From Streptomyces populi (GTDB lineage Bacteria > Actinomycetota > Actinomycetes > Streptomycetales > Streptomycetaceae): 64,000 bases of DNA. Below are positions 1-26,821 of the stretch, piece by piece (within the stretch, counting starts at the first letter, position 1; each line of letters starts with the position of its first letter). The translations under genes and the position numbers were made by a program. The stretch lies in the NCBI RefSeq assembly GCF_002911015.1, contig NZ_KZ626847.1, forward strand, positions 1 through 64,000, in the 5' to 3' direction. Below the pieces are notes generated by a model. It did no database searches and was not told the DNA's origin. It saw only the letters and a program-made list of their open reading frames with translations.

Positions 1-1670
1 GGCCCGGCCGGTCAGCGTCGCGTGGTCGACGCTCCCGTGGCGGTCGATCACCGCCGTCGCGTCCGGACGCCGACGCGCCTCGTCGAGCAGCGCCTGGTGC
101 AGCAGCGCGTCGCCGACCGGCCGGGCCGTGTCGTTGACCGCCGTCCGCCGCCGCGCCTGGTGTTCGGGGAGGGCGAGCGGGTCGCCGTCCCATACGTCGT
201 CCCCGTCGGCGAGCCGGTGCAGCAGGTCGCGGAACGCGGCGAACATGTCGTCGAGCACCGGGCCGGGCACGGTGTCGTCCCGCACGTCCCAGTTGACGAG
301 CAGTGCCCCTCCCGCCTCCATCGCCTGGCAGTCCACCCAGACCTGCGGCGTCTGGCTGATGCCGTTGCGGATCCGGGACCGCATCATGCCCCGCGGGGCG
401 AGACCGTCGGAGAGCCCGATGGCGCTGGTGAACACCACCGGCATCGTCGAACCCTGCCGACCCCGGCGGCGGGTGAGCTCGCGCAGCACCTCCACGCCCG
501 AGAACAGCCGGTGGTCGAGGTCCTCGAAGAGCTGCTCGCCCGCCCTGCGGGCGCGTTCGGCGAAGGTGCCGGCGCAGCCGCCGTCGACGGCCAGCAGTTC
601 GACGGAGGTGAAGTCCCCCACGATGTCGCCCACGTCCGGGTGCAGGGGCAGCCGGCTGAGCACCGTCACGTCGAGGGTGAACCGGGGGTTGCGGCTCCAG
701 CGGCCGATCACCTCGGCGTACGCGGCCATCACGGCCGTCGAGGCGGAGACCCGCCGCTCCCCGGAACGGGCCTTGAGCGCCGACCACAGCGCGGGCTCCA
801 GACGCAGCTCACGGCGGGTGAAGCCGGCCGGGCCCTGCCGGCTGGGCCGGTCGACCAACGGCAGTTCGGGGGCCGGCGGCAGGGTGTCCAGCCGCGCCGT
901 CCAGTAGTCGCGGTCACGCTCGTAGGCGGGGCCCTGGCGCACCGCGCGTTCCGCCCGCAGATAGTCACGGAACGAGATCCCGGGCGCCGCGAGGGCGGCG
1001 TCGGGGTCCTCGTAAAAGGTGCCGAACTCGTCCAGCAGCCGGTAGATGCTCACGTAGTCGGCGATCAGGAAGTCGATGGAGAAGTGCAGGACGGCCCGGT
1101 CGGCCAGCTCGGTGACCTCCAGGGAGTACAGCGGACACACGGTGACGTCCTTGGACTCGGCGGAGAGCCGGCCGCGGACCTCGCGGAGCGTCTCCTCGCC
1201 CGCCGCCTCCGGCAGTCCGGTCGCGTCGTGCCAGCCGATGACCGGGGCGGGCGGGTCCTTCAGCACCCGCTGGTAGCCGTCGTGGTCGATGACCACGCGC
1301 AGCATCTCGTGCCGGTCGACCACCCGCCGCCAGGCCCGCAGCAGCCGGTCGCGGTCGAGCGCGGGGAACTCCAGCTCGCCGTAGGCGTGACAGGGCACCG
1401 AGCCGTACTCGAAGGCGCCCCGGCGGCCCAGCAGGTAGGCCGACTGGACCTCGGTGAGCGGGAACGGCTCGTGGGCCGCGGCGGGATCAGGCCGCACCTG
1501 CTGCGGGCCGCGTTCGCGCAGGGCCCGGAGCACGTCCTCCCGGCAGTCGGCGAGCAGCTTGCGGCGCTCGGGGGTCATCGCCCCCTCCGGTCCCCGGAAA
1601 CGGATCCTGCCCTCGTCCTCCCACAGGTGCAGGCCGACCTGTTCGAGTTCGCTGATGATGCCGGCGGCGG

Positions 1671-1674
<4 letters not shown>
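1..1674 (-). CDS. NRPS with TubC docking domain, Cy domain and start of an A domain (partial)
   Basis: The GTG start at 1674 overlaps the stop of the upstream NRPS as GTGA, so the two are translationally coupled; the 3' part lies outside the window. Residues 1-50 look like a TubC N-terminal docking domain (ISELEQVGLHLW, then RIRFRGPEGAMTPE), which accepts a chain from a partner subunit. Residues 70-500 form a condensation-type domain whose active motif is D201-F-L-I-A-D206-Y-V-S209. This is DxxxxDxxS, the signature of heterocyclisation (Cy) domains rather than HHxxxDG. An adenylation domain begins near residue 525 and is cut by the edge. The protein should add and cyclise a third Cys/Ser/Thr in the assembly line. 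The substrate of its A domain cannot be read here. Confidence 0.93.
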
Positions 1675-8262
<6,588 letters not shown>

Positions 8263-8273
<11 letters not shown>

Positions 8274-9576
8274 CGTGGCCTCCCGTGCGTGGCCCGGGGC
8301 GGGCCCCGGCCTGGTCGGTGTGGGGCGCCGCGCTGCGGGCGGCGGTCGTGCAGTCGTCGACGTACGCGGCGAGCAGCGACTCGGCGAACTCCGGGTCGAA
8401 ACGGTCGGGGTTGTAGAAGAGCAGCACCCGCACCGTGTCCCGGTCGGGCACGGCGACCAGCTCCAGCTCGAAGCGGGTGGCGACGCCGTCGGGAACCAGG
8501 ACCTCGATGTCCAGTCCGCCGGCCCGGGTCGAGTACACCGGGTCCGCCATCATCTGGAAGACCACGTCGTCGAGCCGCCGGTCGGTGTCCCTGAGACTGA
8601 TCGGCAGCATCTGGAACGGCAGCGCCTGGTGGACGAACGCCGCCATCACCGTGCCGTGCGTGGCCCGCAGGTGCGAGGCGAAGCCGGTGCCGGTGAGCCG
8701 GGTCCGCAGCAGCACCATGTTGGCCAGGAACCCCACGGTGCGGCGGTGTTCGGCGCTGCGATTGGCGAACAGGGTCGCCACCGCCAGGTCCTCCGCACCG
8801 CTGACCGCCCGCAGGGCACGGTAGTAGGCGGTGAGCAGGGCCACGAACATCGTCGACCGCTCCCGCTTGGCCAGGGTGTCCAGCGCGGCCACCGTCGGCG
8901 CGTCGAGGACGTGCTGCACGAGCCTGGTGTCGCGCGGCGCGCCCACGGTGGCCTGCCGGATCGGCAGCGGGGGCAGCGTCACGTCCTTCAGACGTTCGCC
9001 CCAGAAGGCCCTCAGCCGTTTTCCGGAAGGACCGGCCAGGGCCTCGCGCTGCTCCTCGGCGAACCGGGAGTACGCCGTGGCGTCGTCGGAGGCCTTCCCC
9101 TCCAGCGCGGCACACAGGTCCTCGAAGATCACGTTGCAGGACCACGAGTCGGTCACCATGTGGTGCATGTTGAAACAGAGCACATGATGGTCCTCGGCGA
9201 GCCGCCACAGCGTGATGCGAACGGCGCTTTCGGCGGCGTCGATCCGGGTGCCCAGCTCCCTGGCGACCTCCCGGTCGGCGGACTCCCCCGGATCCGGCTC
9301 GCCGGAGAGGTCCACCTCGCGGATCTCCGGTGACGCGGCCGGGTGCACCAGAGCCTTGAGCCGGTGGCCGCCGCCGGTGAAGGTGGTGCGCAGAGCCTCG
9401 TGCCGGGACGTCACGTGGTCGACCGCCTCCCGGAGTCTGTCGCGGTCGAGCGGACCGCGCAGCCTGCACAGCACCGGGCAGTTGAGCGCGCCCTCCTCGC
9501 CCCGGTAGCGGTCGAGGAACCACAGCAGCGTCTGGCCCGCGGACGGACGGATCTCGGTGACTGTCACGTCCGGCAA
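8263..9576 (-). CDS. Free-standing NRPS condensation domain protein
   Basis: About 437 residues, the size of a single condensation domain. The catalytic motif HHMVTDSWS (HHxxxDxxS) and the later NRSAEHRRTVGFLANM block (C5-type) are intact, so it should be an active amide- or ester-forming enzyme, unlike the Cy domains downstream. There is no carrier or adenylation domain. It heads the minus-strand NRPS operon and its stop overlaps the next ATG by 11 bp. It could couple the amino acid made by the divergent MbtH-A-PCP set to the chain, or release the finished chain. The start is uncertain: TTG at 9576 and GTG at 9567 both lack a strong ribosome-binding site. Confidence 0.85.
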
Positions 9577-9760: not shown

Positions 9761-11746
9761 ATGCCAGCCAACCCCTTCGAAGACCCGGACGAGAGCTACC
9801 TGGTCCTGTGCAATCAGCACGGCCAGCGATCGCTGTGGCCGGCCCGGCTGCCGTCCCCCGCCGGATGGCTGGTGGAGCTGCCCGCGACCTCCCGCGCCTG
9901 CGCCCACGTGCACGTCGAACGCGTCTGGCCGGACGTGCGCGCAAAGGCCCCCGCGGAGGCCGCGCCCGCCGCCGAGACGCTTCCCGTTCTCTTCGAGCGG
10001 GTGGCGGCGGAGCACCGGGAGCTGCCGGCGGTCGAGAGCGAGAGCACCGCTCTGGCGTACGGCGAGCTGGCGGACCGCGTGAACCGGCTGGCCCGGCGGC
10101 TGCTCGCGGTCGGCATCGGCCCCGGTGGCCTCGTCGGGATATCCGTACCCCGCGGGATCGACCAGGTGGTGGCGGCACTCGCCGTGACGACCGCCGGAGC
10201 GGGCTACGTACCCCTGGACCCGAGCTATCCGACGGCGCTGCTGCGCCACATGGTGGCCGACTCGGGGGTGCGGACCCTGCTGCACACCGGTCTGCCGCCG
10301 GTGGACGTCACCGGCCTGGACACCCTCGACCTCGCCTCCCCGGACACCGTTTCCCGTCCGGCCGGGCCGGTCACCGACGAGGAGCGACGGCGGCCGCTGC
10401 GCGCCGAGGACACCGTCTACGTCATCTACACCTCGGGCTCCACCGGGACGCCCAAGGGCGTGGTGATCCCGCACGCCGGTATGGCGGCGCTGGCCGCGGC
10501 GCAGCGGCACTGGATCGGCCCGGGCCCCGGCGACCGGGTGCTGCAGTGGGCCTCGTTCAACTTCGACGCCGGATTCTGGGACCTGACGCTGGCCCTGCTG
10601 TCGGGAGCCACCCTGGTGCTCACCGACGACCGCGCGGTGCTGCCCGGTGAGGAACTGCGCCGCACGCTGATCGACCGGCGGATCAGCCATGCGGTGCTGC
10701 CCCCGGTCGCGCTCACCGCCACCGACCCGGACGGCGTCCTGCCCGGCGGGGTGGTGCTCTCCACCGGGGACGCCTGCACACAGGCGCTGGTGGCGCGGTG
10801 GGCGCCCGGTCGGCGCATGTTCAACGGGTACGGGCCCACCGAGATGACCGTGGGGGTGACCATGGCGGGTCCGGTGCGGCCGGGCGAGCCGGTCAGCATC
10901 GGGGAGCCGTGGCCGGGCAACGAGGTCCGGGTGCTCGACATCGACCTCCGGCCCTGTCTGCCGGGCGAGGAGGGAGAGCTCTACCTGGCGGGCGAGGGGG
11001 AGGCCCTCGGATACCTGAACCGGCCCGCTCTGACGGCGGAGCGCTTCGTCGCGGACCCGTACGGCGGCCCCGGGAGCCGGATGTACCGCTCCGGCGACCT
11101 CGGGTATCTGGACAAGCACGGCTCGCTCTTCTTCACCGGCCGCGCCGACCGCCAGATCAAACTGCGGGGCTTCCGGGTCGAACTGGGCGAGGTGGAGACG
11201 GCGCTGGAGTCCTGCGACGGGGTCAGGCTCGGGGCGGTGGTCGTCACCGGTGAGGTGGACTCGGCGCGCCTGGTCGCCTTCGTGGTGCCCGACGCGTACC
11301 CGGTCGACGGCCTGGCGGAGGAACTGCGCCGACGGCTCGCCGAGCGGCTGCCGGCGCACATGGTGCCCGCTCGCGTCGAGGTGGTGGCGTCCCTGCCGAT
11401 GACCGACAACGGCAAGATCGACCGGCGCGTCCTGGAACGCCGGGCCGCTTCGTCACAGTCCACCGCGGAATCCGGCGGTGCGGGCGCCACGACGGTGTCC
11501 GGCGGGTCCGCCCGGGCCTTCGACCGGTCCGACCCGGTGGCCGCGCTGTGTGAACTGGCCGCCAGGGTGCTGGAGGTGCCCGCGGTCGCGCCGGACGACA
11601 ACTTCTTCGACCGCGGCGGGCACTCGGTGCTGGCGGTGCGTCTCGCCAAGGCGGTACGGGACGACTGGGGGATGAGCCTGCCGGTACGGGCCATCTTCGA
11701 GCGGCCCACCATGGCGGAGCTGGGCGGCCTGCTGACCGCGAACTGA
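9761..11746 (+). CDS. MbtH-adenylation-PCP fusion, amino acid loading protein
   Basis: 661 residues. ATG at 9761 follows a GGGAGG site; an upstream in-frame extension to 9557 is not needed. Residues 1-60 are an MbtH-like domain (NPFEDPDESYLVL, then SLWP and PAGW). An adenylation domain with TSGSTGTPKG, NGYGPTE and NGKIDRR follows, and a PCP (FFDRGGHSVLA) ends it. The same architecture is known in NikP1 of nikkomycin and in the loading proteins that present tryptophan to a P450 for beta-hydroxylation in quinoxaline/quinoline peptides. My reading of the A code is D-A-W-V-L-T-G-V-G-K, which matches no specificity I can recall. Tryptophan is inferred only from the neighbouring dioxygenase. The gene is divergent from the NRPS operon. 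Confidence 0.93.
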   Translation: MPANPFEDPDESYLVLCNQHGQRSLWPARLPSPAGWLVELPATSRACAHVHVERVWPDVRAKAPAEAAPAAETLPVLFERVAAEHRELPAVESESTALAYGELADRVNRLARRLLAVGIGPGGLVGISVPRGIDQVVAALAVTTAGAGYVPLDPSYPTALLRHMVADSGVRTLLHTGLPPVDVTGLDTLDLASPDTVSRPAGPVTDEERRRPLRAEDTVYVIYTSGSTGTPKGVVIPHAGMAALAAAQRHWIGPGPGDRVLQWASFNFDAGFWDLTLALLSGATLVLTDDRAVLPGEELRRTLIDRRISHAVLPPVALTATDPDGVLPGGVVLSTGDACTQALVARWAPGRRMFNGYGPTEMTVGVTMAGPVRPGEPVSIGEPWPGNEVRVLDIDLRPCLPGEEGELYLAGEGEALGYLNRPALTAERFVADPYGGPGSRMYRSGDLGYLDKHGSLFFTGRADRQIKLRGFRVELGEVETALESCDGVRLGAVVVTGEVDSARLVAFVVPDAYPVDGLAEELRRRLAERLPAHMVPARVEVVASLPMTDNGKIDRRVLERRAASSQSTAESGGAGATTVSGGSARAFDRSDPVAALCELAARVLEVPAVAPDDNFFDRGGHSVLAVRLAKAVRDDWGMSLPVRAIFERPTMAELGGLLTAN

Positions 11747-11782
11747 GGCGGCGCGGACCACGGGGATCCGCGTCGGCCGGGC

Positions 11783-11816
11783 GGCCCCTTCCCGGTGAGC
11801 GGTACCGGGAGGGGCC
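11783..11816. terminator. Bidirectional hairpin between convergent genes
   Basis: GGCCCCTTCCCGGT pairs with ACCGGGAGGGGCC with one bulged base. It lies in the 80-bp gap between the ends of the MbtH-A-PCP gene and the P450 gene, where a shared terminator is expected. There is no T-run, as is usual in Streptomyces. Confidence 0.6.
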
Positions 11817-11826
11817 CGGCCGCGGC

Positions 11827-13068
11827 TCAGTCGAGCCGCAGGTGCAGGGCGCTGTGCCCGAACAGGAAGTTGGAGTAGACGCGGGGCGGTTCCCGGAGGA
11901 TCTCGATCCGGTGCACCCGGCGGACCAGGGAGTCCAGAACGGCGGAGAGTTCCAGCCGGCCGAGGAAGGCCCCCAGACAGAAGTGGGGGCCGTGCCCGAG
12001 GGCGAGGTGGGGGTTGTGCTCCCTGCCGACGTCGAAGCGGCGGGGCCGAGCGAAGACGGCCGGGTCGTTGTTGGCGGAGATGTTCCACAGGGTGACGATG
12101 TCGCCCGCCGACACCTCGGCGGGGCCGATCCGCAGGTCGGCGGTGGCCGTACGGGCGAAGTGCATGGCTGGAGTCACCCAGCGGAGCACCTCCTCCACCG
12201 CCGTCCGCACCGTCGCCCCGCCGGTGCGCAGCCGACGCCACTGCTCCTCGTGGGTGCCCAGGGCGTGCAGTGCGCCGATCGTGGTCACCCGGGTGGACTC
12301 GTCGCCCCCCAGGATCAGGCTGTAGCAGTTGAGAGCGAGATCGTCCTCCGTCATCGGCTCGTCCCCGACCCGGGCGCCGGCGATCATGCTGATCACGTCC
12401 TCGCCGGGACGGCGGCGGCGCTCGCGGACCACGTCCACGAAGTAGGACAGGATCTCGTTGCGGGCCTCCAGTGCGTCGAAGGGGTCGTCCTCGGCGCTCT
12501 CGGACGACAGCGCGCGCTTGTTCCAGTCGAGCAGCAGGGGCCGGTCGGAGGCGGGCAGTTCCAGCAGGTCGCACACGGTGTTGAGCGGCAGGTGCTCGGC
12601 GATGTCGCGTGCGGCATCGGCCTCGCCCGCACCGACCACGGCGGTCACCAGGGCGTCGGCCCGCCGCCGCACGGCGTTCTCCACGTGCCCGAGAACCCGT
12701 GGCGAGAAGGCGCGCAGCATCACCTGGCGCAGTTCGCGGTGGCGGGGCCGGTCCATCACCGCCAGCATCCGGCCGCCGGCCGAGTCGCCGCCGCGCAGCA
12801 GGACGTCCAGCACCGTGCCCCGGGCCGAACTCAGCCGGGCCGCGTCCTTGTAGCAGTTCTGGACGTCCCGGTGCCGGGCCACCGCCCAGAACCCGGGGCG
12901 GCCTCCCACAGGGGGGTGCCACCGCACCGGTTCGCTGCGGCGCATCCGGTCCCAGTACGCGTACGGGTCGTGCTCGACGAAGGCGGCCGGGTCGGCGAGG
13001 TCGGGAGCCGCACCGGAGGGGTCGTCGTACGGGCCGTCGAAGACGGCGGTGTTGCCGGAGGAGACCAC
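11827..13068 (-). CDS. Cytochrome P450, probable PCP-bound amino acid beta-hydroxylase
   Basis: 413 residues from a GTG at 13068 preceded by AAAGGAG. The P450 signatures are present: I-helix LILGGDESTR, K-helix EEVLRW (ExxR), and the heme loop GHGPHFCLGAF with the cysteine thiolate ligand. No membrane anchor is seen, as for soluble bacterial class I P450s; no ferredoxin gene is adjacent. A P450 next to an MbtH-A-PCP protein and a small thioesterase is the NikQ/NovI-type arrangement, in which the P450 hydroxylates the beta-carbon of an aminoacyl-PCP. I infer beta-hydroxylation of tryptophan on the carrier. Its promoter region is shared with the divergent thioesterase operon. Confidence 0.92.
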   Translation of the reverse strand: MVSSGNTAVFDGPYDDPSGAAPDLADPAAFVEHDPYAYWDRMRRSEPVRWHPPVGGRPGFWAVARHRDVQNCYKDAARLSSARGTVLDVLLRGGDSAGGRMLAVMDRPRHRELRQVMLRAFSPRVLGHVENAVRRRADALVTAVVGAGEADAARDIAEHLPLNTVCDLLELPASDRPLLLDWNKRALSSESAEDDPFDALEARNEILSYFVDVVRERRRRPGEDVISMIAGARVGDEPMTEDDLALNCYSLILGGDESTRVTTIGALHALGTHEEQWRRLRTGGATVRTAVEEVLRWVTPAMHFARTATADLRIGPAEVSAGDIVTLWNISANNDPAVFARPRRFDVGREHNPHLALGHGPHFCLGAFLGRLELSAVLDSLVRRVHRIEILREPPRVYSNFLFGHSALHLRLD

Positions 13069-13243
13069 CGGGAGACTCCTTTCGGCCCGGGCACCGGGCC
13101 TGCACGGGGGCGAACTTCTCGTCCCGATCCTCACTTCCCGCACCAGCGCCCGAGGCAGTGCTGAATGAATGCTGAAGGATTCGGCGGCGGCCCCCGGCGC
13201 GCGTGCGACTCTCAAGTCCGAGGCGGGGAAGGGGAGGTCGGCC

Positions 13244-14035
13244 ATGAGCTTGCGTCGCGGATCGGTGCGCACGGTGACGAGCGCGTCGTGCCCCGGGCTC
13301 CGGCTGCTCGCGCTGCCGCACTCCGGCGGCCGCGCGGAGAGCTTCGCCTGCTGGCGCGCCCCGCTGCCCGCGGCGTTCCCCGGGGCCGCGGTGGAGCTGT
13401 GCGCCGCGCAGTACCCCGGGCACGGCGACCGGCTGGCGGAGCCGCCGAGGGAGGAGGTCGGCGCGATCGCCGAGGAGATCGTCGCCGACCTGACCCGGCT
13501 GCCGCCGGCGGACCTGCTGCTCTTCGGCCACAGCTTCGGCTCGGCCGTCGCGTGCGAGGTGGCCCGCCGCTGTCCCGGGGCCGGCATCGACGTCGTTCTG
13601 CTCGTCGCCTCTTCCGCCTGGGCGCCCGGGGACCCGGCCCGGCCCCCTCGCGATGAACACCTGTTGCCCGACGAGGAGCTCTGGGAGCGGCTGGTCGCGC
13701 TGGGGGGCATCGACTCCGGCATCGCGGCCGAGGCCGAGATCCGTGATCTGGTGCTCCCCGCGATGCGCGCGGACATCGGCGCGCACGAGCGCTACCTCGG
13801 CTCCCCGGACCCGGTTCCGCTCACCTGCGACGTGCACGTCTGCATGGCCCGGGGGGATCCCCTCGTGCCGGTCCTGGCCGGCCGTCACTGGAGTCGGCTC
13901 ACCACCGGGAACGCGAGTGTCGACATCAGATCCGGAGCCCACTTCCACGTCTTCGACGACCCCGCGAGCCTGCTCGCGGACCTGGCACGGAGGGTTCCGG
14001 CCCATGCGAAGGGAGGTTGTACGGCGCATGAGTAG
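13244..14035 (+). CDS. Type II thioesterase (alpha/beta hydrolase)
   Basis: 263 residues, the usual size for a type II thioesterase. ATG at 13244 follows GGGGAGG. The LPHSGG start strand, the nucleophile elbow GHSFGS with its serine, a late aspartate in ARGDPLVP and the catalytic histidine in GAHFHVF are all visible. It may hydrolyse the hydroxylated amino acid from the MbtH-A-PCP carrier, as NikP2 and the echinomycin/thiocoraline thioesterases do, or clean misprimed NRPS carriers. It heads a plus-strand operon with the SDR, aminotransferase and tryptophan dioxygenase. Its last codons overlap the SDR start, which indicates coupled translation. Confidence 0.9.
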   Translation: MSLRRGSVRTVTSASCPGLRLLALPHSGGRAESFACWRAPLPAAFPGAAVELCAAQYPGHGDRLAEPPREEVGAIAEEIVADLTRLPPADLLLFGHSFGSAVACEVARRCPGAGIDVVLLVASSAWAPGDPARPPRDEHLLPDEELWERLVALGGIDSGIAAEAEIRDLVLPAMRADIGAHERYLGSPDPVPLTCDVHVCMARGDPLVPVLAGRHWSRLTTGNASVDIRSGAHFHVFDDPASLLADLARRVPAHAKGGCTAHE

Positions 14036-14786
14036 TTCTTGGGAGGGCCTGCGGCTGGTCGTCACCGGCGGCGGCTCGGGCATCGGGGCCGCCGTGGTCG
14101 CCCGCGCGGCCGGGCTGGGCGCCGACGTCCTGGCGGTCGGCAGACGTGCCGACCGGCTGGCGGAGGTGACGGCGAAGGCGGGGGCCGAGGGAGGGGGCAC
14201 CGCCGTGCCGTACGCCGTGGACGTCACGGCCCCCGACTCCGCCGCGCGGATCGCGGAGCGGGCCGGGGAAGTGCTCGGCGGCGTCGACGCGTTGGTCAAC
14301 AACGCGGGACACGCGGTCTTCGACCGCCTGGAGGACGCCACCGAGGCGGACCTGCGGGGGATGGTCGACACCAACCTGGTGGCTCCCGCCCTGCTGATCC
14401 GGGCGCTGCTGCCCATGTTGCGCAGCAGCCGGGGCTGCGTGGTCAACGTCTCCTCCGTCGGCGGCGTCCTGGCGATGCCGTCCCGGTCCTTCTACGGGGC
14501 CAGCAAGGCCGCGCTGAACTCCCTGACCAGGTCGCTGGCGGTGGAACTGGCGCCTGAGGTCCGGGTCAACGCGGTCCTGCCCGGTCCGGTCGACACGGGC
14601 CTGTGGGACCTGGCGGCCGGCGAGGGCGCGGACGCCCTGCGCGAGGGGATCGTGGCCGGCACCCCCATGGGACGGTTCGGCCTGGCCTCGGAGGTGGCGG
14701 CCTGGGTGTGCCACCTCGTCGACCCCGGGACCTCGTCCTGGATCACAGGATCCCTGGTGGCCGTGGACGGCGGACGAGCGGCGTGA
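14028..14786 (+). CDS. Short-chain dehydrogenase/reductase in the NRPS cluster
   Basis: 252 residues with the NAD(P)-binding TGGGSGIG, the NNAG motif (VNNAGHAV), serine in VNVSSVGG, and the catalytic YGASK. It starts at ATG 14028, inside the thioesterase stop (ATGAGTAG), with GGGAGG about 11 bases upstream. Nothing in the sequence fixes the substrate. Its place between the thioesterase and aminotransferase suggests a redox step on the hydroxylated amino acid, for example oxidation of the beta-hydroxyl or adjustment of a cyclised quinoline intermediate. It could also act on the peptide. Confidence 0.9.
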   Translation: MSSSWEGLRLVVTGGGSGIGAAVVARAAGLGADVLAVGRRADRLAEVTAKAGAEGGGTAVPYAVDVTAPDSAARIAERAGEVLGGVDALVNNAGHAVFDRLEDATEADLRGMVDTNLVAPALLIRALLPMLRSSRGCVVNVSSVGGVLAMPSRSFYGASKAALNSLTRSLAVELAPEVRVNAVLPGPVDTGLWDLAAGEGADALREGIVAGTPMGRFGLASEVAAWVCHLVDPGTSSWITGSLVAVDGGRAA

Positions 14787-14849
14787 GCCACACCCCAGGA
14801 GACCACCTGGCCGGCCCGACCCGGCCGGTCCTGCCACCAGCGGAAAGGC

Positions 14850-16097
14850 ATGAATCAGATGACGCAGACAGCTCCACCCTGGTTCGCCCGGGCCTCGGCG
14901 ATCCCCTCCTCCTGGCTGTACGAGTCCTTCCGGCTCGCCAACGAGCGTGAGCGGGAGCGCCCCGGTCTGATCAAGCTGCACGTGGGTGAGCCGGCCTTCG
15001 GCCCGCCGGACTCCGTCGCCAAGGAATTCGCCGCCGCCGCCGTGGAAGGCCGGGCCCGCTACATCGACGTGCAGGGGCTCATGGAGCTCCGCGAGCGTCT
15101 CGTGGACAAGCTCGACACCGTCAACCACATCGACACCGAACCCTCCCGGCTCTTCGTCAGCCCCGGGTCGTGCCAGGGGCTCAGCTCGCTGATGCGCTCT
15201 CTCGCCGACTCGGGAGCGGAGATCCTGCTGCCGGAGATCCACTGGCCCGTGCACCTGCAACAGGTCCTGCTCGCCGGATTCCGCCCGGTCTTCTACAAGC
15301 TCGACGAACACTTCGCGCCCGACCCCGAGTCGATCAGGCAGGTGGCCGGCCCCGCGACACGGGTGCTGCTGCTCAACACCCCGTCCAACCCCACCGGCGC
15401 GGTCATCGGCCTCCCGTTGCAGCGGACCCTCTACGAGATGGCCGACGAGCACGGCTGGCAGATCATCAGCGACGAGGCCTACGAGGACTTCGCCTTCTCC
15501 GGCCCCCACCTGTCGATCGCCGCCCTGGAGCGCGACCGCCCCGCACCGGAACGCATCGTCAACAGCGTCTTCACCTTCTCCAAGGGACTGGCGATGACCG
15601 GCTACCGGCTCGGTTACGTCGCGGTCTCGCGGCCCGGGACCGCCACCGCCATGCGCACGGTGCAGGAGTCCTGCATCATCGCGCCCTCCGCACCCGTCCA
15701 GTACGCCGGGCTGGCCGCCCTGGACGCGTCGGGAGCGCTCGCCGGCAATCACGACTTCGTACGGGGGAACCGGGACGCGCTGTCCCCGCTGGTCGACGAA
15801 GGACTGCTGCCCGCGCTGCCCGGCGGCGGCTGGTACGCCATGGCCGACATCTCCTCCACCGGCCTGACCGGCGAGGAGTTCAGCGCCGAACTCATGCTCC
15901 ACCACGACGTCGTGGTCGTTCCCGGCAGCGGATTCTCCGCACGGCCCGAGTTCGCCCCGGACGGCTCGATGCGACCTCTGAAGCCCGGCGGCGTCGCGTC
16001 CGGCATGGTCCGGATCGCGTTCTGCGTCGACCGCGGGCAACTCACCACCGGAGTGGAGCGCCTGATCGGCCTGGTCCGCGAGAAGAGGGAACAGTGA
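14850..16097 (+). CDS. PLP-dependent class I/II aminotransferase
   Basis: 415 residues, typical of fold-type I aminotransferases. Seen are the NPTG loop (NTPSNPTGAVI), the DEAYEDF motif that contacts the cofactor pyridine, and the PLP lysine in FTFSKGLAMTGYRLGY. The start is ATG 14850 directly after GGAAAGG; a second ATG at 14859 is possible. In 3-hydroxyquinaldate formation (thiocoraline TioG) an aminotransferase converts beta-hydroxykynurenine to its keto acid, which closes to the quinoline. The tryptophan dioxygenase gene overlaps the end of this gene, which supports the same role here. That role is inference. Confidence 0.92.
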   Translation: MNQMTQTAPPWFARASAIPSSWLYESFRLANERERERPGLIKLHVGEPAFGPPDSVAKEFAAAAVEGRARYIDVQGLMELRERLVDKLDTVNHIDTEPSRLFVSPGSCQGLSSLMRSLADSGAEILLPEIHWPVHLQQVLLAGFRPVFYKLDEHFAPDPESIRQVAGPATRVLLLNTPSNPTGAVIGLPLQRTLYEMADEHGWQIISDEAYEDFAFSGPHLSIAALERDRPAPERIVNSVFTFSKGLAMTGYRLGYVAVSRPGTATAMRTVQESCIIAPSAPVQYAGLAALDASGALAGNHDFVRGNRDALSPLVDEGLLPALPGGGWYAMADISSTGLTGEEFSAELMLHHDVVVVPGSGFSARPEFAPDGSMRPLKPGGVASGMVRIAFCVDRGQLTTGVERLIGLVREKREQ

Positions 16098-16813
16098 TGC
16101 GGACAGAGGTGACCTATGCCGCCTACCTGAAACTCGACGACCTGCTCAAACTCCAGGAGCCGCGCACACCCGACGACGCCGCGGACCTCACCACGGTGCT
16201 CTCCGAGCAGTTCTTCATCGTCAGCCACCAGACCTGCGAGCTGTGGCTGAAGCAGATCCTCGGCGACCTGGCCGCCGTGGAGGGCAACTTCCTGACGATG
16301 ACCACCACAGACCTGGAACGGTCGGTCGACCTGCTCTGCCGGGCCGGTGAACTGCTGCGCCTGCTGCACGAGCAGCTCATGGCGCTCGAGCGGCTGCCGC
16401 TGGAGGACTTCGTCCGCTTCCGGCAGTACCTCGGCACGGCCAGCGGCGCCCAGTCCAGTCAGTCCCACGAACTGGAGCGGGTGCTGGGCAGTGCCAGCCG
16501 CTCCGGGTCGCTGTTCCTGGCCTTCCGCGCCGGGCTGGAGCGCATCGGCGCCGACCTGGAGGAGATCGTCGGAGCGGGCGTGGCGGCGGGTCCGTTCCAC
16601 CGGGTCGTCGAGGCGATGCTCAGGGTCGGCAACGGCTACTTCCAGTGGAAGATCGGGCACGTGGGCCTGGTGACGAAGATGATCGGGGAGCAGTCGGGCA
16701 CCGCCGGCACCTCGGGAGTGGCGTACCTCATGGACCGTGCCACGATGCCGTTCACCGAACTTCACGAACTGCGCGGCAAGGTGCACGAGCGGCGGCGCCG
16801 GCAGGTGGGCTGA
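16097..16813 (+). CDS. Tryptophan 2,3-dioxygenase family heme enzyme
   Basis: 238 residues, shorter than housekeeping enzymes. The ATG shares one base with the aminotransferase TGA. Family motifs are clear: the distal histidine in FIVSHQTCELWLKQIL, the carboxylate-binding arginine region FRQYLGTASGAQS, the heme-ligand histidine region WKIGHVGLVTKMIG, and GTAGTSGVAYL. The enzyme opens the indole ring of tryptophan to N-formylkynurenine. In echinomycin and thiocoraline clusters the homologue acts on released beta-hydroxytryptophan. With the MbtH-A-PCP, P450, thioesterase and aminotransferase, it points to a quinoline acid such as 3-hydroxyquinaldic acid. No formamidase is seen nearby. Confidence 0.92.
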   Translation: MRTEVTYAAYLKLDDLLKLQEPRTPDDAADLTTVLSEQFFIVSHQTCELWLKQILGDLAAVEGNFLTMTTTDLERSVDLLCRAGELLRLLHEQLMALERLPLEDFVRFRQYLGTASGAQSSQSHELERVLGSASRSGSLFLAFRAGLERIGADLEEIVGAGVAAGPFHRVVEAMLRVGNGYFQWKIGHVGLVTKMIGEQSGTAGTSGVAYLMDRATMPFTELHELRGKVHERRRRQVG

Positions 16814-16867
16814 CCGCCGCGGAAGCGGCCCTCCGGCCCGCGCACGCGGGAGGACCCGCGACGCCGC

Positions 16868-16913
16868 ACGCGAAGTGTCCGGCCCCTTCGAGGAGGGGCC
16901 GGACACTTCGCGT
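16868..16913. terminator. Strong bidirectional hairpin
   Basis: A perfect 19-bp inverted repeat (left arm 16868-16886, right arm 16895-16913, 8-base loop) sits between the convergent dioxygenase and winged-helix regulator genes. It should terminate transcription from both sides. Confidence 0.85.
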
Positions 16914-16929: not shown

Positions 16930-17439
16930 TCAGCCGGCGGCCTCCAGGATGTAGCCCCGGCCCCATACCGTGCGCAGGCTCAGACGGACGCCGTACAGCC
17001 GCTGGCGCAGCCGCATGATGTGCAGGTCTATCGCGTTGCTGGTGACCGCCTCGTTGTTGATGCGGCTCAGGGCCTTCTTCAGCCTGTCCCGGCGGACGAG
17101 ATGGCCGAAGTCGGCCAGGAAACAGCGCATCATCTCGCTCTGCGCATCGGACATGGGCACCGACTGCCCGCCGTAGTAGAGCACCCCGGTCGGATCCAGC
17201 GCGGGCATGAAGTCCGTCCCGGTGCGCCGCTGCAAGGTGTGGACGCGCGCCGCCAGGTCGAGGCGGGCCACCGGCGGGCGCACCCAGTCCTCGGTGGGCG
17301 AGATGTCGTTCGGCGGTGCCGTCTGGCCCTCCAGGACCAGCAGGCACGGCAGCCCCGCCTCGCGCAGCTGGTCCCGTTCGTGGCTCTGTACCGGCCAGCG
17401 GAGAAACTTGACTTCGTGCTTGTGAACGAGCGTGGCCAT
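16930..17439 (-). CDS. Winged-helix regulator with pseudo-receiver N-terminus (OmpR/PhoB-type DNA-binding domain)
   Basis: 169 residues from ATG 17439, preceded by GGGGG; a TTG at 17466 is a weaker choice. The C-terminal 95 residues form a winged helix (SNAIDLHIMRLRQRL, then VWGRGYIL) like response-regulator output domains. The N-terminal 70 residues (CLLVLEG, EDWVRPP) resemble the end of a receiver domain but lack a phospho-acceptor aspartate pocket. It is therefore probably an atypical, phosphorylation-independent pathway regulator. It sits between the tryptophan-derived precursor operon and the flavin monooxygenase and is a likely cluster-situated regulator. No partner kinase is nearby. 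Confidence 0.8.
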   Translation of the reverse strand: MATLVHKHEVKFLRWPVQSHERDQLREAGLPCLLVLEGQTAPPNDISPTEDWVRPPVARLDLAARVHTLQRRTGTDFMPALDPTGVLYYGGQSVPMSDAQSEMMRCFLADFGHLVRRDRLKKALSRINNEAVTSNAIDLHIMRLRQRLYGVRLSLRTVWGRGYILEAAG

Positions 17440-17857
17440 GGTCGTGACCCCCGTTTCCCGTGACAAGTGGACGCTGGTGTGCGGGGCCGGTGACGTCGCC
17501 GGGGCATGCGCGCGTCCGTCCGGGCCGCCGTCGGAGTGTCGGCCGACGGTGCTGCCGGAGCTGGTCCGGGACGCGAGCGAATCGTTCCGCTGCTGCCTGG
17601 CTTCGACGCCGGTTCCCCAGGTGATGTCGTCACCGGCCCGTGACGGTGATCCTGCCGGGTCTCGATTCCAGGCCGGTTCCGGGTGGATTCCGCTTCGACG
17701 GGGGCTCGATTCCGGCCCGAGCCAGGGGCCGGCCCGCGGCGGGACGGCGAAAGGAGCACGACATGGTCGCGTGGGAGCACCGGGTGATCGGCAAGAGACC
17801 TCGTACAGAGGCCGACCGTCCGAAGCCTCTGAACGCGGTCATGATCAGGAGCACGCG
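17440..17857. promoter_or_regulatory. 418-bp divergent control region with CTCGATTCC direct repeats
   Basis: No convincing gene lies here. The segment separates the minus-strand winged-helix regulator from the plus-strand monooxygenase. CTCGATTCC occurs at 17661-17669 and again at 17705-17713, 44 bp apart on the same face. OmpR-type proteins bind direct repeats, so these are candidate sites for the adjacent regulator. This is inferred from spacing only. Confidence 0.35.
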
Positions 17858-19175: not shown

Positions 19176-19556
19176 TCAGCGCAGCTCGCCGGTGACGATC
19201 CAGAGGTGACCGAACGGGTCGCGGAGGCGTCCCTCCCGTTTGCCGTACGGGCGGTTCTCCACCGGTACGACCACGGTGCCGCCTCCGGCGACCATCCGCT
19301 CGGCGACGGCGTCCTGGTCCGTGAACTCCGCTTCCAGGAGGACCGGGGAGCCGCCGACGTCGTCGGGCGAGAGCCAGCCCCACTCGGGCACTGCCGGGGA
19401 CAGGGAGAGCGGTGAGCCGCCGATCCGCAGGACGACGACCATCACGCGGCCGTTGTCGTCCTGGGCGCGGAAGACCTCCTCGGCGTCCATGGCCTTCTGG
19501 TAGTAGGCCGCTGCGGTGTCGGGGTTCGGGACGATTAATCGTGGCGTCAGACTCAT
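19176..19556 (-). CDS. VOC (glyoxalase/bleomycin resistance-like) family protein
   Basis: 126 residues. A single PhnB-like VOC unit: it begins SLTPRLIVPNPDTAAAYY and ends with the conserved RDPFGHLWIV strand. VOC proteins bind metal ions or sequester small molecules; no substrate can be named. Codon 7 is TTA (plus-strand 19536-19538), the rare leucine codon read by bldA tRNA in Streptomyces, so translation may be developmentally controlled. It is convergent with the NRPS-associated monooxygenase and not obviously part of an operon. Confidence 0.88.
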   Translation of the reverse strand: MSLTPRLIVPNPDTAAAYYQKAMDAEEVFRAQDDNGRVMVVVLRIGGSPLSLSPAVPEWGWLSPDDVGGSPVLLEAEFTDQDAVAERMVAGGGTVVVPVENRPYGKREGRLRDPFGHLWIVTGELR

Positions 19557-22644: not shown

Positions 22645-24252
22645 TCAGCGCAGGGGGTCGATCACGACGCCGGGATTGAGGATCCCGGACGGGTCCAGCA
22701 CGGCCTTGCCCGCCCGCAGGGCGGCGGCGAAGAGGTCCGGGCGCTGCCGGTCGTACCACGGCCGGTGGTCCCGGCCCACCGCGTGATGATGGGTGATGGT
22801 GGCACCGTGCGCGATCAGCGCCTCGGAGACCGCCTGCTTGATCTCGTCCCACTGCTCGACGGTCCTGCCCCACGCGCCCGCGGCGTATATCCCGAAGTAC
22901 GGGGCGGGGCCGTCGGGATAGACATGGGTGAACCGGCAGGTCACGACACCCGTGGCGCCGACCTGGCGCATGGCGTCGCGGGCCGCCGCGTCGACGGCCG
23001 CGCGGAGGCCGGCGAACCGGTCCCAGGTGCAGGCCGTCTCGAACGTCTCCACGATCATGCCCTGGGCGGCGAGGGCGTCCCGCTGATAGGGCATCCGCAG
23101 GAAGGAGGAGCGCCAGGTGTCGGCGGCCGAGGTCCGGGCGGCCGTGTCCGCGGGGCCGGTGTACCGCGGTGGCTCCGGAAGCGTGCCCCCGTGGTCGAGG
23201 CAGAGCTCCAGCGCGCGTTCCGTCCACGCGTCGACGGGGTGGTCGGCGGACTCGAAGCCCAGCACCAGGACCGCGGTCGGGCTGCCCGCGTTGATGAACG
23301 CCTCCATCGGGTCCAGCAGCCGGCAGTTCGCCGGGTCGAGCCCGGACTGCGCCAGGGCCCGTACGGCCCGGACCCCCGCCTCGTGGTCCTGGAAGGCGAC
23401 GGAGGCCCCGGCCCGCCACCGCGGTCGGTCCTGGAGGCGTACCCAGGCCTGGGTGATGACACCGAGCGTTCCCTCGGAACCGAGGAACATCCGGTCGGGC
23501 GAGGGACCGGCGCCCGAACCGGGCAGACGGCGGCTCTCGACGACGCCGGCGGGGGTGACCACCCGCAGCGACTCGGTGAGGTCGTCGATGTGGGTGAGGC
23601 GGGTCGCGAAGTGACCGCCGGCCCGGGTCGCCAACCAGCCGCCGAGAGAGGAGAACTCGAAGGACTGGGGGAAGAACCGGAGCGTGTATCCGTGGGGTCT
23701 GAGCTGATCCTCCAGGTGCGGGCCGAGGACGCCGGCCTGGACGAGCGCGGCCCGGCTGGTCCCGTCGACCTCCAGAACCCGGTCCAGGGAGCCGAGATCC
23801 AGGCTGACCACTCCCGCGTACTCCGCACCCGTACGGGCTTCGACGCCTCCCACCACGGAGGTGCCGCCGCCGAACGGGACGACCGCCGCGCCGGCGCCGT
23901 CGCACCATTCCAGGATCCGCACCACCTCGGCCTCCGACGTGGGGCGCATGACGAGGTCCGGCACGTGGGGCAGCTTTCCGAGCAGCGCGCGCACGACGTC
24001 GCGGAACGCCTGGCCGTGGCTGTGCGCCAGCCGGTCGCGGAGGTCGTGCGAGGCCGACCGGGCCAGCGAGGGCGGAGGCGAGAGCCTGCTCGGGGCCACC
24101 TCGAACGATTCGACCGGGGGAGCGGAGTGCACGGTCAGGTCCGCGTCGGGGAGCAGCTCGGCGGTGCGCCGGGTGAGTTCCGCCCGCTCCGCGCCGGTCA
24201 CGGCGTCCTCGACGTTTCCCCAACCCCACCACGAACGCGTCCTGCGGCTCAT
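22645..24252 (-). CDS. FAD-binding oxidase, alkyldihydroxyacetonephosphate synthase-like
   Basis: 535 residues. ATG 24252 follows GGAGGGG, which is preferred over ATG 24267. The PCMH-type FAD domain is visible as VVPFGGGTSVVGGVE (pyrophosphate loop) and MFLGSEGTLGVITQAWVRL. The C-terminal FAD-linked oxidase cap ends with THHHAVGRDHRPWY, the histidine-rich active-site loop of the AGPS/D-lactate dehydrogenase group. It probably oxidises a 2-hydroxy acid or makes an ether lipid-type bond; the true substrate is not known. It is divergent from a TetR gene that likely represses it. Confidence 0.88.
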   Translation of the reverse strand: MSRRTRSWWGWGNVEDAVTGAERAELTRRTAELLPDADLTVHSAPPVESFEVAPSRLSPPPSLARSASHDLRDRLAHSHGQAFRDVVRALLGKLPHVPDLVMRPTSEAEVVRILEWCDGAGAAVVPFGGGTSVVGGVEARTGAEYAGVVSLDLGSLDRVLEVDGTSRAALVQAGVLGPHLEDQLRPHGYTLRFFPQSFEFSSLGGWLATRAGGHFATRLTHIDDLTESLRVVTPAGVVESRRLPGSGAGPSPDRMFLGSEGTLGVITQAWVRLQDRPRWRAGASVAFQDHEAGVRAVRALAQSGLDPANCRLLDPMEAFINAGSPTAVLVLGFESADHPVDAWTERALELCLDHGGTLPEPPRYTGPADTAARTSAADTWRSSFLRMPYQRDALAAQGMIVETFETACTWDRFAGLRAAVDAAARDAMRQVGATGVVTCRFTHVYPDGPAPYFGIYAAGAWGRTVEQWDEIKQAVSEALIAHGATITHHHAVGRDHRPWYDRQRPDLFAAALRAGKAVLDPSGILNPGVVIDPLR

Positions 24253-24287
24253 CGCCCCTCCAGTCATCCGAACTGAACGCCGGGTAA

Positions 24288-24316
24288 TTTACTGGTCGGT
24301 CACTTTGGCATAGGGT
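24288..24316 (+). promoter_or_regulatory. Promoter for the TetR gene, probably leaderless, with possible operator
   Basis: -35 TTTACT (24288-24293), a 17-bp spacer and -10 TAGGGT (24311-24316) place transcription start at about 24323, the A of the TetR ATG, so the mRNA may be leaderless. The overlapping TTACTGGTCGGTCA (24289-24302) is an imperfect palindrome and a candidate autorepressor site. Confidence 0.45.
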
Positions 24317-24322
24317 GGCGGC

Positions 24323-24991
24323 ATGAGCAACCAGGAGAAGGCGACGCGGAGCGTGGGCACCAAGGGGATGCCCCGCAAGGACCGGGAGCGGCTGATCCTG
24401 GAGGCGGCCGCCGGGGAGTTCGGCGCGAAGGGCTACGCGTGCGGGTCGACCGCGCAGGTGGCGGCACGGGCCGGCATCACCAAACCCATGATCTACGAGT
24501 ACTTCGGGTCCAAGGACAGCCTCTATCTGACCTGCCTCGACCAGGCCGGCACCCGCCTGGTCGAAGCCGTCGCGTCCGCCCAGCAGGGGCCCTCCGACCT
24601 CTCGCGCGCCGTACGCACCCTGGGGGCCGTCTTCCGCGCGCTCGAATCGCGCCCGCACGACTGGGAACTCGTCTACGACGGGACCCTTCCGGCCGAGGGT
24701 CCGCTGTACGAGGCGGCGACCGGATACCGGCGGGAACTCAACCGGATGGGCGCGGTGGGCGTGGCCGAATTCCTGCACGCCTCCCCGGCCGTGGAACCCC
24801 TCGACGCCGACCTCGGCACCCACCTCTGGTACGGGACCGTGAGCGCCGCCGTCGCCTGGTGGCGGCACCACCCCGAGCAGACCGCCGACGCGATGGCCGC
24901 GCGCTTCGAACGCATCGTCGCGGTGCTCTGCCCGGACCTGTGGGCGGCACCCGGAGCGGACGGAGGACCGTCCGGGGTTCGCTCGGCGTAG
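24323..24991 (+). CDS. TetR-family repressor
   Basis: 222 residues. The N-terminal helix-turn-helix (about 20-65) has AAAGEFGAKGYACGSTAQVA and GITKPMIYEYFGSKDSLY, the TetR signature. The C-terminal all-helical domain (WRHHPEQTADAMAARFERIV) should bind an unknown ligand. It is divergent from the AGPS-like oxidase with a 70-bp gap and is its probable repressor. Confidence 0.92.
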   Translation: MSNQEKATRSVGTKGMPRKDRERLILEAAAGEFGAKGYACGSTAQVAARAGITKPMIYEYFGSKDSLYLTCLDQAGTRLVEAVASAQQGPSDLSRAVRTLGAVFRALESRPHDWELVYDGTLPAEGPLYEAATGYRRELNRMGAVGVAEFLHASPAVEPLDADLGTHLWYGTVSAAVAWWRHHPEQTADAMAARFERIVAVLCPDLWAAPGADGGPSGVRSA

Positions 24992-25176
24992 CAGAGCGGG
25001 CGGCGCTCCCGCAATCCGTGCGATGACGACTGCCATGCGCACGGTTGTGGTGGCGGACGCCATGTCACGGCGGTCACAGGCGGTCGACCCTGGGGTTCCG
25101 CAACGCCCCGCTCGTCCGATGGCCAGGGACGGCCCAGGACGGGCGGGGCCGGACACCCCCAGAGAGGGAGCCGCGC

Positions 25177-26658: not shown

Positions 26659-26691
26659 CCGGACCTCAGGTCCCGTCCGCACACGGGAACA

Positions 26692-26744
26692 CGGACCGCC
26701 ATGGTGGCCGACGCTGCTCCCACCCCCGCCATCATGGCGGTCCG
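26692..26744 (+). terminator. Hairpin after the esterase gene
   Basis: CGGACCGCCAT (26692-26702) and ATGGCGGTCCG (26734-26744) are perfect complements around a 31-base loop, 34 bp after the stop. It may terminate the depolymerase transcript ahead of the second esterase gene. Confidence 0.5.
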
Positions 26745-26821
26745 GCACATGTTCCCACCGGTCCCCCTGTCACTAGCCTCCGGCGCGTCCCCACCGTCCC
26801 CACTCGGATTCGAGGTCCCGG

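What the first reader, a model, noticed from the sequence alone, without database searches (positions are those of the whole stretch)
9761..16813. Tryptophan-to-quinoline precursor set next to a Cy-rich NRPS
Seen: MbtH-A-PCP, P450, small thioesterase, SDR, aminotransferase and tryptophan 2,3-dioxygenase, the last four in one tightly packed operon. Known: this set, minus the SDR, builds 3-hydroxyquinaldic acid in thiocoraline, and a related one builds quinoxaline-2-carboxylate in echinomycin. Inferred: the product starts with a 3-hydroxyquinoline acid loaded on the aryl carrier protein and extended by thiazolines. That would be a metal-binding scaffold unlike the salicylate-capped pyochelin/yersiniabactin group. 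I cannot name a known compound with this logic.
Basis: partly seen in the sequence, partly recalled or inferred. Interest (0 to 1): 0.87.

Follow-up and report, generated by a model that had tools for sequence, protein, structure and literature searches.

The report
Quinoline-capped coelibactin-like peptide gene cluster
A Streptomyces gene cluster appears to join a tryptophan-derived quinoline cap, known from DNA-binding antitumour peptides, to an assembly line of the kind that makes coelibactin-type metal binders, and its product seems not to have been described.

Summary
Window 9761-16813 encodes MbtH-A-PCP, P450, type II thioesterase, SDR, aminotransferase and tryptophan 2,3-dioxygenase (TDO). 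Gene order and strands match the 3-hydroxyquinaldic acid (HQA) genes of the sandramycin producer, whose set includes the SDR (TioH type). The TDO groups with HQA-type enzymes, apart from primary TDOs (100/97). The A-domain code is 8/9 identical to the thiocoraline-type enzyme. The contig ends inside the second NRPS gene. The rest lies on another contig of the same genome, including a TioJ-like ligase whose pocket motif fits a bicyclic acid and not salicylate. The NRPS core (ArCP-Cy-A-PCP-Cy-A-PCP / Cy-A-MT-PCP-TE, SacDH-like and Irp3-like enzymes) aligns full length at 43-45% with salicylate-capped, coelibactin-like clusters. Salicylate synthase is absent. So the salicylate starter module appears replaced by an HQA module. 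The family occurs in 10 of 54 named TDO loci. A related type keeps the assembly line but lacks the 3-hydroxylation genes. Unexpectedly, the terminal TE carries His at the nucleophile position in 9 of 9 loci (Cys in the 2 salicylate relatives). Product, metal binding and release chemistry are inferred. No iron or zinc box was found.

The parts
1..1674 (-). NRPS2, N-terminal part (TubC docking, Cy, start of A); cut by the contig end, continues on G000:C30:4-3846 (A, MT insert, PCP, TE)
   Evidence: Pfam TubC_N + Condensation; open-ended ORF; C30 continuation 87% to the plasmid relative
1671..8273 (-). NRPS1: ArCP-Cy-A-PCP-Cy-A-PCP, 2200 aa
   Evidence: Pfam: 3 PP-binding, 2 Condensation, 2 AMP-binding; Cy-type motif DMIVCDASS; A codes DLYNLGLIH and DLYNISMIW; 45% over full length to coelibactin-like NRPS1
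8263..9576 (-). standalone condensation-domain protein, first gene of the NRPS operon, overlaps NRPS1 start; role unknown
   Evidence: Pfam Condensation; conserved in type A and type C clusters
9761..11746 (+). MbtH-A-PCP, predicted to load L-Trp (TioK/TioT counterpart, fused)
   Evidence: Pfam; code DAWVLTGVG, 8 of 9 identical to the V. sioxanthis homologue; 50% identity to the K. sandramycini homologue
11827..13068 (-). P450, predicted beta-hydroxylase of PCP-bound Trp (TioI/Qui15 counterpart)
   Evidence: Best solved relative 4l0e (E 9.8e-127; known to me as P450sky); 60-61% to homologues in sandramycin/thiocoraline-type loci
13169..14035 (+). type II thioesterase, predicted release of beta-hydroxy-Trp (TioQ counterpart); start may be 13244
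   Evidence: Pfam Thioesterase; 36% to K. sandramycini homologue
14028..14786 (+). SDR, TioH/San7 counterpart (3,4-dihydroxyquinaldate to HQA)
   Evidence: Pfam; 55% to K. sandramycini and V. sioxanthis homologues; role from PMC4052310 passage
14850..16097 (+). PLP aminotransferase, TioG counterpart
   Evidence: Pfam; 53-54%; tree
16097..16813 (+). tryptophan 2,3-dioxygenase, TioF/Qui17 type
   Evidence: Pfam; tree 100/97 apart from primary TDOs; fold model
16930..17466 (-). winged-helix regulator conserved beside HQA genes
   Evidence: 46-49% homologue in K. sandramycini and V. sioxanthis loci; annotated winged helix-turn-helix in NBC_00727
17858..19054 (+). FAD-dependent monooxygenase, conserved in the cluster; role unknown
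   Evidence: Pfam FAD_binding_3; present in type A and C clusters
19176..19556 (-). VOC-family protein, conserved cluster edge
   Evidence: same reading frame start as the annotated VOC protein of NBC_00727; 92% between NBC_00727 and G005; 63% in L033

Best explanation
The genes are the starter-unit module of a roughly 45 kb hybrid cluster. Shown by sequence: a complete HQA gene set (A-PCP with MbtH, P450, TEII, TDO, AT, SDR and a TioJ-like ligase) sits with a coelibactin-like heterocyclizing NRPS core, and the salicylate synthase of the coelibactin type is absent. Inferred from the characterized bisintercalator pathways: Trp is loaded on the A-PCP, beta-hydroxylated by the P450 and released by the TEII; the TDO opens the ring, the formyl group is lost (spontaneously or by the conserved alpha/beta hydrolase), AT closes the quinoline, and the SDR removes the 4-hydroxyl to give 3-hydroxyquinaldic acid. 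The TioJ-like ligase (C30:17757-19385) adenylates HQA and loads the ArCP of NRPS1. NRPS1 and NRPS2 add three heterocyclized residues (ring 1 Cys, or Ser/Thr; rings 2 and 3 Cys), with Irp3-like reduction and methylation as in sorangibactin. Release is not by a normal Ser/Cys thioesterase, because the TE nucleophile position is His in the family. Product predicted: HQA-capped thiazoline/thiazolidine peptide, probably metal-binding.
For: Same gene order and strands from A-PCP to regulator as the K. sandramycini locus, with 36-60% identity. Trp-type code shared with bisintercalator A-PCPs. P450 nearest to 4l0e. TDO tree and AT tree place them with HQA-type enzymes. Ligase: its plasmid homologue is 50-55% identical to the ligases in L051/L049; small residue A/S after the HN motif in 15 of 15 quinoline-cluster ligases, where 4 of 4 salicylate and DHB ligases seen have F or Y (two plasmid ligases, 5wm2, 1md9). 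NRPS core: full-length homology to coelibactin-like NRPS1/2, SacDH and Irp3-like genes in the same order. No salicylate synthase in window, C30:1-40000, G005 80 kb or the NBC_00727 pieces, while 2 of 2 positive controls were found; only 33-34% relatives elsewhere in the genome. Rest of the cluster in the same genome on C30. TE elbow GAH[S/V/G]G in 9 of 9.
Against: No chemistry, expression or mutant data. The TioJ-like ligase is also 48-49% identical to salicylate ligases, and its branch relative to them is not resolved (80/83), so the bicyclic assignment rests on the pocket motif and gene context. The first A domain code is ambiguous. Roles of AMP1 + ACP-like protein, the standalone C domain, two extra P450s, BBE and FAD oxidases are unexplained, so the product may carry a further acyl unit. 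C8 and C30 are two contigs; their join is inferred from NRPS2 being split between them and from the relatives' gene order.
Confidence: 0.8

Rival explanations
1. The cluster makes an ordinary salicylate-capped coelibactin or yersiniabactin-type metallophore, and the Trp genes serve something else nearby.
For: NRPS core is 43-45% identical to salicylate-type clusters and the ligase is 48-49% identical to salicylate ligases.
Against: No salicylate synthase in the cluster or its relatives and no close relative in the genome; ligase pocket motif differs; TDO-AT-SDR genes travel with this NRPS in type A and type C clusters.
Confidence: 0.06
2. The Trp-derived unit is not the starter but an internal or terminal unit (for example beta-hydroxykynurenine or HQA joined by the standalone C domain), and AMP1/ACP supply the starter.
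For: A free C-domain protein, an extra AMP ligase without a recognised C-terminal domain and a small ACP-like protein are conserved in the cluster.
Against: A TioJ-type aryl ligase and an N-terminal carrier domain before the first Cy domain are the standard loading architecture; coelibactin-like NRPS1 has the same layout and nearly the same length.
Confidence: 0.1
3. The cluster is a bisintercalator (thiocoraline/sandramycin-like) cluster.
For: The HQA gene set and order are the same.
Against: No multi-module C-A-PCP depsipeptide NRPS in the cluster; three Cy modules, SacDH and Irp3-like reductase instead.
Confidence: 0.02

Closest known systems
Thiocoraline / sandramycin HQA pathway (Tio, San proteins)
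   Same: All starter genes, same order and strands from A-PCP to regulator as the K. sandramycini locus, same A-domain code type, TioJ-like ligase
   Different: MbtH is fused to the A-PCP; the starter feeds a Cy-type NRPS instead of a bisintercalator depsipeptide NRPS; the ligase lies about 34 kb from the TDO (inferred across the contig join) on the other side of the NRPS genes
Coelibactin / sorangibactin NRPS (salicylate-capped)
   Same: ArCP-Cy-A-PCP-Cy-A-PCP / TubC-Cy-A-MT-PCP-TE layout, SacDH-like gene, Irp3-like reductase, TEII and methyltransferase in the same order; 43-45% identity of the NRPSs
   Different: No salicylate synthase; different ligase pocket motif; TE elbow His instead of Cys; no annotated iron uptake genes beside it; many extra oxidases and a standalone C domain
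Desferrithiocin (recalled, no sequence comparison)
   Same: A hydroxy-azaaryl group next to a thiazoline would give a comparable chelating motif
   Different: Pyridine not quinoline, one ring
Pyochelin / yersiniabactin / watasemycin
   Same: Aryl starter + Cy modules + thiazolinyl imine reductase (recalled, and passages of PMC11626248)
   Different: Salicylate starter; fewer or PKS-interrupted modules (recalled)

Membership tests
HQA (3-hydroxyquinaldic acid) starter module | Trp-specific A-PCP with MbtH | tested here: met
   Domains; code DAWVLTGVG vs DAWVMTGVG; activity not assayed
HQA (3-hydroxyquinaldic acid) starter module | PCP-dependent beta-hydroxylating P450 | tested here: met
   Best solved relative 4l0e, 60-61% to homologues in HQA loci; reaction inferred
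HQA (3-hydroxyquinaldic acid) starter module | Secondary-metabolism TDO | tested here: met
   Tree 100/97, key residues invariant
HQA (3-hydroxyquinaldic acid) starter module | TioG-type aminotransferase and TioH-type oxidoreductase | tested here: met
   53-55% identity, same position; AT groups with HQA loci 100/99
HQA (3-hydroxyquinaldic acid) starter module | TioJ-type AMP ligase | tested here: met
   50-55% identity and pocket motif; on contig C30; branch relative to salicylate ligases unresolved
HQA (3-hydroxyquinaldic acid) starter module | HQA actually produced | not testable with these tools
   needs chemistry
Coelibactin-like metallophore | ArCP + three Cy modules, MT, terminal TE, SacDH, Irp3-like reductase | tested here: met
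Coelibactin-like metallophore | Salicylate starter genes | tested here: not met
   salicylate synthase absent, controls positive
Coelibactin-like metallophore | Cys nucleophile in TE | tested here: not met
   His in 9 of 9 quinoline-type loci, Cys in 2 of 2 salicylate-type loci
Coelibactin-like metallophore | Metal-responsive control | tested here: inconclusive
   no iron or Zur box in window or C30:1-20000 with recalled patterns; no Zur positive control
Bisintercalator depsipeptides | C-A-PCP depsipeptide NRPS | tested here: not met
   Cy-type NRPS instead

The most novel reading that the evidence does not exclude
An actinobacterial assembly-line family in which the aryl cap has been exchanged as a cassette on one homologous NRPS core (salicylate in coelibactin-like clusters, 3-hydroxyquinaldate in type A, a quinaldate without the 3-hydroxyl in type C), and in which the terminal TE domain works without a Ser or Cys nucleophile, with an invariant His at the elbow. 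Release would then be by direct attack on the PCP thioester, by the separate TEII or standalone C domain, or through an unusual acyl-His intermediate.
Probability: 0.35. Interest if true: 0.78.

Novelty: new variant of a known kind. Interest (0 to 1): 0.62.

Why it matters
If true, this is a metallophore-like scaffold with a 3-hydroxyquinoline cap, a chelator not in the list of NRP metallophore chelating groups given in PMC12971057 (passages), so chelator-based genome mining could miss it. It would also show natural cap exchange between salicylate and quinoline starters on one assembly line, and the His-elbow TE gives a direct test of how a carrier-bound chain can be released without a Ser/Cys nucleophile.

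Tried and rejected
Considered and rejected: bisintercalator cluster (NRPS architecture does not fit); salicylate starter (no synthase, pocket motif differs); defective TDO because of its short middle (short form is shared by the clade, key residues invariant, fold model good); iron/zinc regulation (no boxes; patterns recalled, genome positive control for the iron box only, none for Zur). I first read the NRPS2 TE motif as a Ser nucleophile (note); the alignment with relatives shows His at that position and Ser one place later, the latter not conserved, so that reading was dropped.

Tried, inconclusive: rooting the ligase tree to show a cap-cassette exchange; the place of the type C ligase and of the salicylate ligases is not resolved. 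The TDO and AT trees put type A with HQA enzymes and type C outside or with other loci, but the direction of exchange is unknown. The regular-expression codes were replaced by the alignment. The TE fold model is of a type C relative (L059), not of the window's own TE, and only one of five models was confident (82.9 against 52-63). Paper searches for a product found none; the library lacks most subscription journals and preprints, and MIBiG could not be searched.

Rows dropped: and 102 sequences outside score, coverage or length limits; none of the 62 collected rows. Of the 54 named loci, 34 went into A3; left out were L030, L044, L048, L050, L052, L055, L057, L060, L063, L064, L067, L068 and L072-L079, L057 because its translation held a stop.
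Full report
Observation. The window begins at the start of contig C8 of a 9.59 Mb genome in 277 contigs, taken as Streptomyces because named relatives at 85-91% TDO identity are Streptomyces. Pfam confirms each named gene: MbtH-A-PCP 9761-11746 (+), P450 11827-13068 (-), type II TE 13169-14035 (+), SDR 14028-14786 (+), aminotransferase 14850-16097 (+), TDO 16097-16813 (+). The last four overlap or nearly so. On the minus strand lie a standalone C domain (8263-9576), NRPS1 ArCP-Cy-A-PCP-Cy-A-PCP (1671-8273) and the start of NRPS2 (1-1674), which runs off the contig.

Rest of the cluster. An orthologous cluster at 80-89% identity sits in the complete genome G005 (11 of 11 genes tested) and, annotated, on a 209 kb linear plasmid of Streptomyces sp. 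NBC_00727. They show what the window lost: NRPS2 is TubC-Cy-A-MT-PCP-TE, followed by a saccharopine-dehydrogenase-like gene, an Irp3-like thiazolinyl imine reductase, a TEII, an O-methyltransferase, a BBE-type oxidase, a VOC protein, a SAM methyltransferase, a hydrolase, a FAD oxidoreductase, three ABC genes, a small ACP-like protein (by eye; no Pfam match), two AMP ligases, a phosphopantetheinyl transferase, two P450s and a BTAD regulator. In the window's own genome 20 of 22 plasmid queries match the first 40 kb of contig C30, at positions 4-25169, in the same order; the two that do not are the VOC protein of the other edge, which is in the window at 19176-19556, and an amidase outside the cluster.

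Starter module. The sandramycin producer Kribbella sandramycini (L051) holds AMP ligase, A-PCP, P450(-), TE, SDR, AT, TDO, regulator(-) in that order; the window has the same order and strands from A-PCP to regulator. Identities to L051 are 50, 50, 60, 36, 55, 54, 46 and 49% (the ligase query being the plasmid homologue). PMC9962454 (passages) lists san3-san9 as TioJ, TioK, TioI, TioQ, TioH, TioG, TioF homologues. PMC4052310 (passages) gives the roles of TioG and TioH. PMC3578932 (passages) reports that Qui15 acts only on Qui18-bound Trp and that TDO Qui17 converts beta-hydroxytryptophan. The A-PCP code is DAWVLTGVG against DAWVMTGVG in the V. sioxanthis and S. echinatus homologues. The P450's best solved relative is 4l0e, which I know as P450sky.

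TDO. In an IQ-TREE tree of 62 rows the window TDO lies in a 12-row clade of type A clusters (100/99), sister to type B (100/98), inside a 50-row secondary-metabolism group separated from 10 primary TDOs and two unassigned rows (100/97). 'Primary' is my label; the genome's second TDO (L001) falls there. In 35 aligned sequences H44, R109, S116, H188 and T202 are invariant. The AlphaFold model (pLDDT 89, five models 86.7-89.0) matches TDO structures.

Distribution. Of 54 named loci found with the TDO alignment, 10 are type A (HQA genes + standalone C + Cy NRPS; nine Streptomyces and Actinopolyspora alba), 3 are type B (HQA-type TDO and A-PCP with a different Cy NRPS), and 5 are type C (TDO, AT, SDR, TE with SacDH, Irp3-like and O-MT; no P450 or A-PCP in the held stretch). 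The other 36 are bisintercalator-like or unclassified. With the standalone C domain as marker, 7 of 392 genomes of the genus, the window's included, match at E <= 1e-60: five at 86-100% (type A-like) and two at 54%. In G040 (type C) nearly the whole cluster is homologous at 42-64%, but the MbtH-A-PCP and the beta-hydroxylase P450 are missing, and the best full-length P450s in that genome are 32-35% identical. This is a natural contrast: same assembly line, cap predicted without the 3-hydroxyl.

Relation to coelibactin. PMC10127202 (passages) describes sorangibactin and coelibactin-like clusters with SacDH, Irp3-like reductase, methyltransferases and a TE with active-site Cys. Two salicylate-type clusters on Streptomyces plasmids (S. 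clavifer, strain SAT1) carry salicylate synthase, an aryl ligase, two NRPS genes, SacDH, Gfo/Idh, P450, TE and methyltransferase. Against these the window NRPS1 aligns over nearly its full 2200 residues at 45-46%; for the genes outside the window the NBC_00727 homologues were used: NRPS2 43%, SacDH 41-43%, Gfo/Idh reductase 42-43%, TEII 44%. I call them coelibactin-like from gene content; S. coelicolor itself was not compared. Salicylate synthase is absent from the window, C30:1-40000, 80 kb of G005 and the two NBC_00727 pieces, with 2 of 2 positive controls found; in the genome only 33-34% relatives occur.

Ligase. The TioJ-like ligase is related to both HQA ligases (50-55%) and salicylate/DHB ligases (48-49%; best solved relatives 5wm2 and 1md9). 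Its place relative to salicylate ligases is unresolved. However, after the HN motif 15 of 15 quinoline-cluster ligases have Ala or Ser, while the two plasmid salicylate ligases and 5wm2 have Phe and 1md9 has Tyr. A smaller residue there would suit a bicyclic acid (inference). One column (C30 ligase residue 263) is Asn in 12 of 12 ligases of types A, B and the bisintercalator-type group, Thr in the one type C ligase and Leu in both salicylate ligases; that it senses the 3-hydroxyl is a guess.

Release. The terminal TE shows G-A-H-x-G in 9 of 9 quinoline-type loci (type A: G000, G005, NBC_00727; type C: G040, L059, L061, L062, L078, L079) where the two salicylate-type clusters have G-Y-C-L-G; the His near the C terminus (GDHF/GTHF/GDHY) is kept in 11 of 11. 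The alignment has no gap there, and HMMER, in weak matches, aligns the His to the elbow Ser of solved TEs. In the L059 model the strand ends at residue 79 and the helix starts at 81, so His80 occupies the elbow; Foldseek finds NRPS/PKS TEs first (E 9.1e-9). So a standard Ser/Cys acyl-enzyme is unlikely; what replaces it is unknown.

Product and role. Three Cy modules with codes DLYNLGLIH, DLYNISMIW and DLFNMSLIW suggest rings 2 and 3 from Cys (Cys code recalled; coelibactin-like DLYNLSMIW and DLYNLSLIW); ring 1 may be Cys or Ser/Thr. The best guess is an HQA-capped heterocycle chain with thiazolidine and N-methyl groups as in sorangibactin. A metal-binding role is plausible from structure but has no regulatory or transport support. 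The second AMP ligase, ACP-like protein, standalone C domain and oxidases remain unexplained.

Novelty. Seven full-text searches listed no paper joining HQA or quinaldate to a thiazoline-forming NRPS cluster. PMC12971057 (passages) does not list HQA among the chelating groups it names. The parts are known; the combination, the cap exchange and the His-elbow TE appear new. I rate it a new variant of a known kind.

Noticed in passing
L036:11933-13585: A protein whose start reads like a flavin-dependent tryptophan halogenase lies between TDO and AT in the type B cluster of S. daqingensis, suggesting a halogenated HQA cap; by eye from the translation.
   Followed up: no
L080/L081 (NZ_CP108982.1): The whole type A cluster sits on a 209 kb linear plasmid typed as mobilizable, which fits its scattered occurrence including Actinopolyspora.
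   Followed up: partly
L065-L071: A further set of loci (Embleya, Saccharothrix, Micromonospora echinofusca and others) pairs TDO, AT and SDR without this P450 and with other A domains; perhaps other quinaldate-type starters.
   Followed up: partly
L063, L064: Chloroflexota MAG loci encode TDOs (39%) that fall in the secondary-metabolism group of the tree.
   Followed up: no
L023:7895-8860: A gene between SDR and AT in the type C cluster of G040, not found between them in type A, read by eye as a SAM methyltransferase.
   Followed up: no
16857-16905: Strong inverted repeat between the convergent TDO and regulator genes, likely a bidirectional terminator (sequence printed).
   Followed up: no
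22645-28267: Beyond the cluster the window has FAD-linked oxidase-like and secreted esterase-like ORFs (by eye); the window beyond 20 kb was not analysed.
   Followed up: no
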